A DNA stretch of 64,000 nucleotides from Henningerozyma blattae CBS 6284 (Eukaryota; Ascomycota; Saccharomycetes; Saccharomycetales; Saccharomycetaceae), in contig NC_020192.1 of the NCBI RefSeq assembly GCF_000315915.1, forward strand, positions 744,001-808,000, given 5' to 3'. Positions 8,295-14,315 of the stretch are shown piece by piece. Under the pieces are notes generated by a model. The model ran no database searches. It was not told the origin of the DNA and saw only the letters and a program-made list of their open reading frames with translations. Numbering within the stretch: the first letter of the stretch is position 1; each line of letters starts with the position of its first letter. Position numbers and translations under genes: made by a program.

Positions 8295-8571
8295 TAAATA
8301 TATTCGTTAATAACTTCCACATGTACATATGTTACGCTTGTATACTAACCTCAATACCATTGCTACTTACTATGGGCCTTCACAATGCATTTTCATGAAA
8401 AAAAATATAAATTAATTATGACAGATTTATTTTTAAAAATTATATAATACAGAGAATATAAAGAATGGGAAATAGAGGATGATGAGTAACAGCTGCCTAA
8501 CAATGAGCTTTATGTAATGGTGGCTGTAACGTCAGAAGGTAAATACCTAATGCAAAGTTTTATCGTATTGA

Positions 8572-9318
8572 TTAACAAGAAACTAATTCAACAGCTTGTA
8601 GGTAGACCTTGGTACATTGTTCCCCTTGGTTTTCATCATATAAATTATAAAAGTTACCAGACAAACATTGGTAGAAGACATCATTGGAACCAATGGCCAA
8701 GTTACCCTTTGGAGTGATGGACCAACCAGCAGCGTAGATGGCACCGGCTTGTGGTGGTGGACCATCGAATTGGAATTGTCTGTTAGAGACGATAGAACCG
8801 ACTCTGCCCTTAGCATCGGTTAAGATACCGTTCTTTAAAGTCATAGTTAAAGTGCCATTGTTCTTGCAGGCTTGAGATTCGAAGAAAGCATCTTCTGATG
8901 ATTGGGCGGAAGAAGTAGAAGCGGTAGATGTTGTAGATTCAGCTTTAGTAGCAGTGGCAGAGAATGATTTACCGTCTAAAGTGGTAGTCTTTCTTGTAGT
9001 AGCTTGGATTTGGCCATCACCGTGACCATCACCGATTTGAGAGACAGCAGCAGCAGTTTGCTTTGGAGCTTCAGTCTTGGTAGTGGTGGTAGCAGCTTGG
9101 ATTTGGCCATCACCGATTTGAGAGACAGCATCTCTCTTAGCTTTAGCAGTAGAGGCAGTCATTGGAACAACAGCAATACCGAAAGAGCCTGTGTAGTCTG
9201 ACATGGCATTGGCGTATTTAGAGTCTGGAGTCAAAGTGGACCATGGTTCAGATGGCTTGTAGGCAGCCATGGCAGAAGAGGCTAAGGCAGCGATAGCTAA
9301 AGTGTTTTTGTATTGCAT
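8572..9318 (-). CDS. PIR cell-wall protein, Hsp150-like, copy A
   Basis: A 248-residue secreted cell-wall glycoprotein of the Pir family, closest by eye to Hsp150/Pir2. It has a signal peptide ([18 protein letters not shown]), a propeptide ending in the Kex2 site AKAKR near residue 62, then two Pir repeats ([10 protein letters not shown]), whose conserved Gln normally forms an alkali-labile ester to wall beta-1,3-glucan. A Ser/Thr-rich linker follows, then a C-terminal domain with cysteines spaced C-66-C-16-C-12-C, exactly the Pir signature. The second repeat is altered by a 4-residue insertion ([12 protein letters not shown]). Codons are strongly biased to the highly expressed set. It is near-identical to copy B at 13079. 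Assignment to one S. cerevisiae PIR gene is not possible. Confidence 0.95.
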
Positions 9319-9330
9319 TGTATAATGTGG

Positions 9331-9462
9331 GAGTGGGAGTGGGAGTGGGAGTGGGAGTGGGAGTGGGAGTGGGAGTGGGAGTGGGAGTGGGAGTGGGAGT
9401 GGGAGTGGGAGTGGGAGTGGGAGTGGGAGTGGGAGTGGGAGTGGGAGTGGGAGTGGGAGTGG
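9331..9462. repeat. hexanucleotide minisatellite (GAGTGG)x22 in PIR copy A leader
   Basis: Twenty-two perfect GAGTGG units (CCACTC on the coding strand), starting 12 bp upstream of the PIR copy A start codon, so probably in its 5' leader. Copy B has the same array with ten units. It is unusually G+C-rich and strand-asymmetric for this genome. Confidence 0.97.
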
Positions 9463-9635
9463 TTGATTGTTGATGGATTCTTGAGTGTTGACAGGAAACT
9501 CTTCTTGCCTGAAACAACGTGTAGTATTTATACTAAAGAATTCTGCATTTTACTGTAATTCAATACTATATTATTAGCCGCTATTAACCATCCATTGCAT
9601 TTTTTTCCAGGCTAGTTTTAAGGGTTCAGCATTAG

Positions 9636-9640
9636 CCAGC
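9636..9640. promoter_or_regulatory. CCAGC motif, Swi5/Ace2-like, PIR copy A promoter
   Basis: AGCCAGCG fits the RRCCAGCR consensus of the M/G1 activators Swi5 and Ace2. A second GCTGG lies at 9776-9780. S. cerevisiae PIR genes are known M/G1 genes, so the motif is plausible here, but it is short. Confidence 0.35.
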
Positions 9641-9924
9641 GCGAGAAAGTTTCCGGATCGAGAAATTCCGGCTGCTGAATGTTCTTCAGAGAAATACTTG
9701 CACGCCCGGTTGAATATATGCTTGGTCAGATATTTTATTGCTTCTCAGTTAATTGAAATAACTAAAAGATGATTGGCTGGCTTAATTTTATATAACTAGA
9801 GAAGTAAGCTTACCAACCATCGGATATCAGGATCACTATCAATCACTTTTTTATTGGGTTTAGGGTGATACAATTTTTATTTTATTTTATTTTATTTTAT
9901 TTTTTTAGTAGATATATCTCTTCA

Positions 9925-12645: not shown

Positions 12646-12718
12646 TAGCTGTAACCCTGAAACAAAAAACCATTATGCTTGATATCCGATGGCTGGTTAG
12701 CTGATATTTGTACCGTTA

Positions 12719-12723
12719 CCAGC
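12719..12723. promoter_or_regulatory. CCAGC motif cluster, PIR copy B promoter
   Basis: ACCAGCCAG at 12718-12726 plus GCTGG at 12692-12696 and 12829-12833 make three Swi5/Ace2-type cores within 140 bp upstream of PIR copy B. Plausible M/G1 control by analogy with S. cerevisiae PIR genes. Binding is not shown. Confidence 0.35.
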
Positions 12724-13006
12724 CAGTTCTTTTTTATATGGCAAATTCAGTTTATTGGAAATCAGACATACGGGAATTTCTGAAGAACATTCAGCAGCCG
12801 GAATTTCTCGATCCGGAAACTTTCTCGCGCTGGCTAATGCTGAACCCTTAAAACTAGCCTGGAAAAAAATGCAATGGATGGTTAATAGCGGCTAATAATA
12901 TAGTATTGAATTACAGTAAAATGCAGAATTCTTTAGTATAAATACTACACGTTGTTTCAGGCAAGAAGAGTTTCCTGTCAACACTCAAGAATCCATCAAC
13001 AATCAA

Positions 13007-13066
13007 CCACTCCCACTCCCACTCCCACTCCCACTCCCACTCCCACTCCCACTCCCACTCCCACTC
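13007..13066. repeat. hexanucleotide minisatellite (CCACTC)x10 in PIR copy B leader
   Basis: Ten perfect CCACTC units ending 12 bp before the PIR copy B start codon. The same array in copy A has 22 units, so length is evolving independently in otherwise near-identical arms. Confidence 0.97.
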
Positions 13067-13078
13067 CCACATTATACA

Positions 13079-13957
13079 ATGCAATACAAAAACACTTTAG
13101 CTATCGCTGCCTTAGCCTCTTCTGCCATGGCTGCCTACAAGCCATCTGAACCATGGTCCACTTTGACTCCAGACTCTAAATACGCCAATGCCATGTCAGA
13201 CTACACAGGCTCTTTCGGTATTGCTGTTGTTCCAATGACTGCCTCTACTGCTAAAGCTAAGAGAGATGCTGTCTCTCAAATCGGTGATGGCCAAATCCAA
13301 GCTGCTACCACCACTACCAAGACTGAAGCTCCAAAGCAAACTGCTGCTGCTGTCTCTCAAATCGGTGATGGTCAAATCCAAGCTACTACCAAGACTGAAG
13401 CTCCAAAGCAAACTGCTGCTGCTGTCTCTCAAATCGGTGATGGCCAAATCCAAGCTACTACCAAGACTGAAGCTCCAAAGCAAACTGCCGCTGCTGTCTC
13501 TCAAATCGGTGATGGCCAAATCCAAGCTACTACAAGAAAGACTACCACTTTAGACGGTAAATCATTCTCTGCCACTGCTACTAAAGCTGAATCTACAACA
13601 TCTACCGCTTCTACTTCTTCCGCCCAATCATCAGAAGATGCTTTCTTCGAATCTCAAGCCTGCAAGAACAATGGCACTTTAACTATGACTTTAAAGAACG
13701 GTATCTTAACCGATGCTAAGGGTAGAGTCGGTTCTATCGTCTCTAACAGACAATTCCAATTCGATGGTCCACCACCACAAGCCGGTGCCATCTACGCTGC
13801 TGGTTGGTCCATCACTCCAAAGGGTAACTTGGCCATTGGTTCCAATGATGTCTTCTACCAATGTTTGTCTGGTAACTTTTATAATTTATATGATGAAAAC
13901 CAAGGGGAACAATGTACCAAGGTCTACCTACAAGCTGTTGAATTAGTTTCTTGTTAA
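13079..13957 (+). CDS. PIR cell-wall protein, Hsp150-like, copy B
   Basis: A 292-residue Pir-family cell-wall glycoprotein, identical to copy A in signal peptide, Kex2 site (AKAKR), linker and the C-66-C-16-C-12-C domain. It differs in having four intact [10 protein letters not shown] repeats, because a 24-residue unit ([20 protein letters not shown] plus QATT) is present two more times. More repeats should mean more glucan attachment points. Divergent PIR pairs also occur in S. cerevisiae (PIR1/PIR3), but there the genes have diverged. The nearest downstream gene is RSM24 on the opposite strand, ~360 bp away. Codon use is strongly biased, as in copy A, suggesting high expression. Confidence 0.96.
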   Translation: MQYKNTLAIAALASSAMAAYKPSEPWSTLTPDSKYANAMSDYTGSFGIAVVPMTASTAKAKRDAVSQIGDGQIQAATTTTKTEAPKQTAAAVSQIGDGQIQATTKTEAPKQTAAAVSQIGDGQIQATTKTEAPKQTAAAVSQIGDGQIQATTRKTTTLDGKSFSATATKAESTTSTASTSSAQSSEDAFFESQACKNNGTLTMTLKNGILTDAKGRVGSIVSNRQFQFDGPPPQAGAIYAAGWSITPKGNLAIGSNDVFYQCLSGNFYNLYDENQGEQCTKVYLQAVELVSC

Positions 13958-14315
13958 TCAATACGATAAAACTTTGCATTAGGTATTTACCTTCTGACGT
14001 TACAGCCCACCATTACATAAAGCTCATTGTTAGGCAGCTGTTACTCATCATCCTCTATTTCCCATTCTTTATATTCTCTGTATTATATAATTTTTAAAAA
14101 TTAAATACTGTCATAATTAATTTATATTTTTTTCATGAAAAATGCATTGTGAAGGCCCATAGTAAGTAGCAATGGTATTGAGGTTAGTATACAAGCGTAA
14201 CATATGTACAAGTGGAAGTTATTAACGAATATATTTAATAATGACTTTTGCGTTTCTATATAATATTTAATATTTTGGAGGTAACATATTTTTTATCGGT
14301 AAATGCTATATTGTA

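What the first reader, a model, noticed from the sequence alone, without database searches (positions are those of the whole stretch)
8295..14237. 6-kb palindrome with near-identical PIR genes as arms
Two 1.4-kb inverted arms, each a whole PIR gene with promoter and 3' flank, face away from each other around a ~3.1-kb centre. Apart from tandem-repeat length they are almost identical, even at synonymous sites. Yet the material between them has diverged so far that one copy of a gene is unreadable. The arms are therefore being kept alike by gene conversion, or duplicated far more recently than the centre. Such a structure can invert its centre by arm-arm recombination, and it sits exactly where gene order switches from S. 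cerevisiae chromosome XI-like (SPC34) to chromosome IV-like (RSM24).
Basis: partly seen in the sequence, partly recalled or inferred. Interest (0 to 1): 0.75.

Follow-up and report, generated by a model that had tools for sequence, protein, structure and literature searches.

The report
Twin cell-wall genes copied onto each other
In a budding yeast, two cell-wall genes that face away from each other have recently been copied over one another, and they and two close relatives on another chromosome appear to mark the four ends of an old chromosome rearrangement.

Summary
The palindrome is real. Arms 8295-9690 and 12779-14237 align over 1,323 bases with 2 substitutions and five 1-bp indels, plus tandem-repeat differences of 72 and 132 bp. 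The species is Henningerozyma (Tetrapisispora) blattae CBS 6284. The centre holds an intact ORF, X, and a decayed inverted copy about 65-67% identical. So the duplication is old and the arms became alike later, most simply by gene conversion, probably right arm onto left. Those copies lie beside KAE1 and an HMO1-like gene, in recalled S. cerevisiae order the neighbours of SPC34 and RSM24. So all four cassettes sit at the ends of two broken adjacencies. Inversion of the 3-kb centre is possible but untested. Flipping the 84-kb segment would restore the partner junction expected of a translocation; a real inversion and an assembly ambiguity cannot be told apart here. The kind is known (S. cerevisiae chr XIV flip/flop); this is a new member.

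The parts
8295..9690 (-). left arm (cassette A): 3' flank, PIR gene, CCACTC repeat, promoter
   Evidence: 2 substitutions in 1,323 aligned bases against the right arm; its homology to B, C and D all ends at 9690
12779..14237 (+). right arm (cassette B)
8572..9318 (-). PIR gene A, 248 aa; two SQIGDG repeats, one of them with an out-of-register join ([11 protein letters not shown])
   Evidence: PF00399 and PF22799; cysteine spacing 66/16/12
13079..13957 (+). PIR gene B, 292 aa; four [10 protein letters not shown] repeats
   Evidence: PF00399 x4 and PF22799
9327..9462 (-). CCACTC hexamer repeat just 5' of ATG in A, longest pure run 22 units
13007..13070 (+). CCACTC hexamer repeat in B, longest pure run 10 units; the chr1 copies have a short interrupted run
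9925..11232 (-). ORF X, 435 aa, no Pfam family; relatives found only in this species
12386..12609 (+). decayed inverted copy of the 3' part of X
   Evidence: 67%, E 3e-12; 95 against at most 38 in 200 shuffles
12650..12778 (+). spacer just inside the right arm: 9/129 different from C and D but 57/129 from A; used to infer the direction B to A
6806..7726 (-). SPC34, left border gene
   Evidence: PF08657 1e-89; PDB DASH subunit SPC34 3e-39
14316..15098 (-). RSM24 (mS35), right border gene
   Evidence: PF10213; PDB mS35 / 37S ribosomal protein S24, best 3.2e-46

Best explanation
An old inverted pair of X-PIR units whose PIR cassettes (promoter, gene, 3' flank) were recently homogenised by ectopic gene conversion, most likely with the right arm B as donor and the left arm A as recipient. 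The pair belongs to a four-cassette set: A and B on chromosome 8, C and D as an inverted pair about 84 kb apart on chromosome 1, each pair homogenised within its chromosome. The four lie at the four ends of two gene adjacencies, SPC34|KAE1 and HMO1|RSM24 (S. cerevisiae order recalled), that are separated in this genome. Shown from sequence: arm identity, sharp edges, homogenisation by pair, and the place of the cassettes beside these genes. Inferred: conversion as the mechanism, its direction, that the adjacencies are ancestral, and that PIR repeats took part in the rearrangement. A crossover between A and B would flip the 3-kb centre without breaking a gene; this is predicted, not shown.
For: A-B: 0/228 promoter, 1/747 CDS, against 57/129 in the adjoining spacer and about 35% in X. 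Sites with a base in all four cassettes: 56 AB|CD, 0 AC|BD, 0 AD|BC, 9 others, whereas X groups A with C if anything (AC 70%, BC 66%, AB 65%). C-D: 0/129, 3/228, 1/726 and 1/172 in spacer, promoter, CDS and 3' flank. The six pairs within A-D are the six most alike of 91 pairs among 14 PIR ORFs. KAE1 at C1:184071-185231 and an HMO1-like gene at C1:270306-270887 stand beside C and D, with X relatives next to both. Chance of both placements about 6.5e-7 (rough and post hoc).
Against: One genome only: no strain comparison, no reads, no second species. S. cerevisiae neighbours are recalled; one search found no paper that gives them. There are two HMO1-like genes: the other, at C8:219, lies beside an IPK (probably ARG82) gene and has no PIR hit near it, so which copy was next to RSM24 is not known. 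Marker families SUN, NAP and SEC7 did not extend the KAE1 or HMO1 blocks on chr1. A simple crossover between two single X-PIR units would give SPC34-PIR-X-HMO1, not the structure seen, so an extra duplication step is needed. D lacks X upstream and is inverted relative to its X relative.
Confidence: 0.7

Rival explanations
1. The X-PIR units were already in the SPC34-KAE1 and HMO1-RSM24 intervals before the whole-genome duplication. Four copies are then two loci times two, and the cassettes are passengers at the ends, not agents of the breakage. Conversion within pairs came later. Not exclusive of the conversion part of the best explanation.
For: SPC34-PIR-X on chr8 and PIR-X-KAE1 on chr1 (flipped) fit one order SPC34-PIR-X-KAE1 with all genes in one orientation. 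X of A and C, about 52% identical in protein, could be ohnologues. HMO1-like is present twice.
Against: It does not by itself join SPC34 to RSM24; a rearrangement is still needed there. The X relative next to D is much more distant (37% over 75 aa), and D's PIR has the other orientation.
Confidence: 0.35
2. The arms are a recent duplication: a PIR cassette was copied and inserted as a new piece, without conversion of a resident gene.
For: Sharp edges at 9690/12779 and near-identity over 1.4 kb. PIR genes do stand alone in other intervals, for example between an acetolactate-synthase-like and a myosin-like ORF on C9. D has no X upstream and may be such an insertion.
Against: For A, B and C the cassette stands downstream of an X copy in the same orientation; independent insertions at the same place next to X three times are unlikely.
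Confidence: 0.15
3. Assembly artefact: one arm was read twice, or the orientation of the centre or of the chr1 segment was chosen wrongly at near-identical repeats.
For: Arms of 1.4-1.5 kb at more than 98% identity are hard for short reads, as stated for the chr XIV repeats (PMC9731477, Discussion). The inferred chr1 inversion has its ends exactly at C and D.
Against: The arms differ by 72 bp, 132 bp, five indels and 2 substitutions, so they were told apart. Chr8 and chr1 cassettes differ by 6-7% in the promoter, so a false join between chromosomes is unlikely. Orientation errors remain possible.
Confidence: 0.08
4. Purifying selection, not conversion, keeps the arms alike.
For: PIR coding sequence and core promoter are probably constrained; between the chr8 and chr1 pairs the CDS is the most conserved part.
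Against: Between pairs the promoter differs at 14-17 of 228 and the 3' flank at 27-32 of 170-172 sites and at 11-14 synonymous codons; within pairs these are near zero. Constraint would act on all four alike.
Confidence: 0.03

Closest known systems
S. cerevisiae chromosome XIV flip/flop region, 4.2-kb inverted repeats with Centroid genes YNL018C/YNL034W (PMC9731477; abstract, sections 12 and 15 and passages read)
   Same: Near-identical inverted repeats that hold whole genes, homogenised within the genome; flanks and centre not homogenised
   Different: There both orientations were found across species and strains; here only one genome. There 24 kb and 15 genes between arms, here 3.1 kb and one intact gene, plus a second inverted pair on another chromosome. 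Different gene family.
Caenorhabditis inverted paralogous gene pairs (PMC1803023; abstract, introduction and discussion read)
   Same: Divergent or convergent paralogues as arms of a long inverted repeat; arms far more alike than orthologues; gene conversion proposed
   Different: Structure kept across three species and including the intergenic sequence; here the centre has decayed and no second species is available
Evolutionary breakpoints on the S. cerevisiae lineage (PMC2675101; passages read)
   Same: Rearrangement ends lie at dispersed repeats and some are re-used
   Different: There tRNA genes and replication origins are enriched; here no tRNA was found in the stretches scanned at the chr1 ends and the nearest in the window is 5 kb away at 19260; the repeat is a protein gene
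Human Y-chromosome palindromes (as cited in PMC1803023)
   Same: Arm-to-arm gene conversion
   Different: Far larger arms; recalled otherwise

Membership tests
PIR cell-wall protein family | PIR repeat | tested here: met
   PF00399 over cut-off in both
PIR cell-wall protein family | PIR1-like C-terminal domain with four cysteines spaced 66/16/12 (spacing rule recalled) | tested here: met
   PF22799; spacing in both proteins
PIR cell-wall protein family | covalent link to beta-1,3-glucan of the wall | not testable with these tools
   needs biochemistry
Homogenised inverted repeat of flip/flop type | near-identical inverted arms holding whole genes | tested here: met
Homogenised inverted repeat of flip/flop type | arms more alike than their age implies | tested here: met
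   spacer and X far more diverged; 56 AB|CD against 0 for other groupings
Homogenised inverted repeat of flip/flop type | concerted evolution across strains or species | not testable with these tools
   one genome held
Homogenised inverted repeat of flip/flop type | both orientations of the centre exist | not testable with these tools
   no reads or second strain
Rearrangement breakpoint marked by a repeat at every end | the same repeat family at all four ends | tested here: met
   A and B beside SPC34 and RSM24; C and D beside KAE1 and an HMO1-like gene
Rearrangement breakpoint marked by a repeat at every end | the broken adjacencies are ancestral | not testable with these tools
   no other yeast genome at hand; S. 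cerevisiae order recalled, one search gave no confirming paper
Centroid gene family (for X) | sequence similarity to YNL018C/YNL034W relatives | not tested
   no Centroid sequence was fetched; X searches found only H. blattae proteins

The most novel reading that the evidence does not exclude
Four PIR cassettes form a self-homogenising network across two chromosomes that took part in the SPC34/KAE1 x HMO1/RSM24 translocation and now keeps two segments invertible, the 3-kb chr8 centre and the 84-kb chr1 segment: a second natural flip/flop system in budding yeasts, in which homogenisation of one gene family drives both translocation and inversion.
Probability: 0.3. Interest if true: 0.7.

Novelty: new member of a known kind. 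Interest (0 to 1): 0.5.

Why it matters
It is a testable case in which copying between members of an ordinary cell-wall gene family appears tied to chromosome rearrangement. For the S. [quoted passage not shown] An independent case with a different gene family, with tract edges that can be read base by base and a link between chromosomes, lets one ask whether the cause is gene dosage, high expression or mere proximity.

Tried and rejected
Purifying selection and a plain artefact were considered and set low (see rivals). tRNA genes at the junctions: 0 in the seven loci scanned (L010, L071, L073, L077, L083, L084, L016); in the window three, the nearest at 19260, 5 kb outside the right arm. X outside the species: with X, 3 hits of 3,507 candidates, all H. 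blattae or the window itself; with TBLA_0G01140 only itself, of 7,993 candidates scored from a capped list; with a four-member profile at E <= 1 only its four members, of 7,930 candidates. Position searches with the families IPK, SUN, SEC7 and NAP did not extend the KAE1 or HMO1 blocks on chr1; IPK and one SEC7 lie near the other HMO1-like gene on C8. Paper searches for PIR conversion, concerted evolution or inverted PIR genes: no paper; two and two, none about this by title and start of abstract (for PMC8975586 also by passages).

Errors of mine: I wrongly reverse-complemented the loci of minus-strand matches; its rows for those stretches are invalid and were redone. In one search the A-B counts of the 3' flank (3/171, 6/106) and the three B-only sites come from alignment slips in A-runs; the exact A-B count is. 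In one search the one A-B non-synonymous codon lies at the join of the 132-bp repeat difference. One search's filter kept 14 PIR ORFs from 17 stretches; C8:686, C3:1420 and C1:1537, which match, did not pass and are not.

Full report
What is there. The window is C8:744001-808000 of a 14,041,469-base, 10-contig genome. Relatives of its ORF X carry the names TBLA_0A00860 and TBLA_0A01180 of Henningerozyma blattae CBS 6284. Between SPC34 (6806-7726, minus) and RSM24 (14316-15098, minus) lie two divergent PIR genes around a 3.1-kb centre. The arms align over 1,323 bases with 2 substitutions, five 1-bp indels and two tandem-repeat differences of 72 and 132 bp. No other inverted pair turned up in the window at minimum length 100 and seed 20.

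The centre. ORF X (9925-11232, minus, 435 aa, no Pfam family at E 0.001) stands 5' of PIR A in the same orientation. Its inverted twin on the right is decayed: 67% over 234 columns, E 3e-12; local score 95 against at most 38 in 200 shuffles. So an X-PIR unit probably stood on both sides long before the arms became alike.

Two more cassettes. A whole-genome search with the right arm finds near-full-length relatives at C1:188135-189530 (plus, one piece, 92%) and C1:273560-274801 (minus, two pieces, 94% and 89%), an inverted pair with about 84 kb between, and more distant PIR genes elsewhere. I call them C and D. Among 91 pairs of 14 PIR ORFs, the six pairs within A-D are the six most alike over the last 330 coding bases (0.988 to 0.997; next 0.967; median 0.82). 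C also has an X upstream, broken by stops. C and D match each other from C1:188057 to 189551, that is from the last codons of X into the 3' flank.

Homogenisation. In the four-way alignment, the columns of 12779-14131 with a base in all four hold 65 variable sites: 56 AB|CD, 0 for each other pairing, 4 C-only, 3 B-only, 1 A-only and 1 other. Promoter differences are AB 0/228, CD 3/228, between pairs 14-17/228; CDS AB 1/747, CD 1/726, between pairs 14-19 of 712-879. X shows no such pairing (AC 70%, BC 66%, AB 65% over 9937-10190). In the spacer just inside the arm, A differs from B at 57/129 sites and from C and D at 60/129, while B differs from C and D at 9/129 and C from D at 0/129. The simplest reading is an older exchange between B and the chr1 copies, a later C-D conversion, and a most recent B-to-A conversion that ended at 9690. 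Order and direction are inferred.

Four ends. By systematic names (recalled) S. cerevisiae SPC34 is YKR037C beside KAE1 YKR038C, and RSM24 is YDR175C beside HMO1 YDR174W. KAE1 is at C1:184071-185231 (best PDB match 4.3e-129, the chain named QRI7 only 4.3e-22), 1.6 kb before broken X and PIR C. An HMO1-like gene is at C1:270306-270887 (HMG box; the name HMO1 rests on recall of its N-terminus), followed by TBLA_0A01180 and PIR D. In all four places the cassette lies on the side of the border gene that faced its lost neighbour. Both chr1 placements by chance would be about 6.5e-7 (rough and post hoc). Against it: a second HMO1-like gene, 66% identical over 103 aa, lies at C8:219 beside an IPK gene, probably ARG82, with an ORF that I read as MAS1-like from memory on the other side, and no PIR hit was listed there. 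This weakens the HMO1 half of the argument, not the KAE1 half.

Mechanism. Gene conversion between inverted repeats makes them alike, and a minority of events cross over and invert the segment between; the authors of the chr XIV study explain that region so (PMC9731477, Discussion). Here conversion is well supported and inversion untested. A hint: KAE1 and the HMO1-like gene both point right on chr1. Flipping the segment between C and D would bring them face to face as KAE1-X-PIR-X'-HMO1 (X' = TBLA_0A01180), the second junction expected of a translocation that made SPC34-...-RSM24. That may be a real inversion or an assembly choice at near-identical repeats. A simple crossover between two single X-PIR units does not give the chr8 structure; an extra duplication step, perhaps the whole-genome duplication, is needed.

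Comparison and verdict. It works like the chr XIV flip/flop repeats (PMC9731477) and the Caenorhabditis inverted gene pairs (PMC1803023). For the flip/flop kind the arm and homogenisation features are met; orientation polymorphism and behaviour across strains could not be tested. The unusual part is two inverted pairs on two chromosomes at rearrangement ends. I saw no paper on it in the listings, which cover an open-licence library only. New member of a known kind, moderate interest.

Noticed in passing
window 9925-11232; P0002, P0003, P0004: X belongs to a fast-changing family of four proteins seen only in this species, with a shared C-terminal HSxSYLRRKS-like motif; the C7 member is a marginal relative (E 0.0045).
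   Followed up: partly
L016 (C9:304870-308819): A PIR gene stands between an acetolactate-synthase-like (TPP enzyme) and a myosin-like ORF; I recall ILV2 and MYO5 as neighbours in S. cerevisiae, so PIR genes can also enter an interval without breaking it.
   Followed up: partly
C1:1057864 and C4:34781: Another PIR pair on two chromosomes, 0.967 alike over the last 330 coding bases but 0.75 over 400 bases upstream: perhaps conversion limited to the gene.
   Followed up: no
window 9327-9462 and 13007-13070: A CCACTC repeat just before the PIR start codon, longest pure runs 22 and 10 units on chr8, short and interrupted on chr1; not seen in the 130 bases before the other ten PIR ORFs listed.
   Followed up: partly
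window 8980-9060: In PIR A one repeat unit has an out-of-register join ([11 protein letters not shown]), so one repeat lacks its usual glutamine at that place.
   Followed up: no
L084 and L085: The chr1 HMO1-like protein (193 aa) stops right after the HMG box, while the chr8 copy runs on for about 50 residues.
   Followed up: no
window 1629-1946: A 105-aa ORF that reads like a piece of a Ty1/copia polyprotein (reading from memory); not searched.
   Followed up: no
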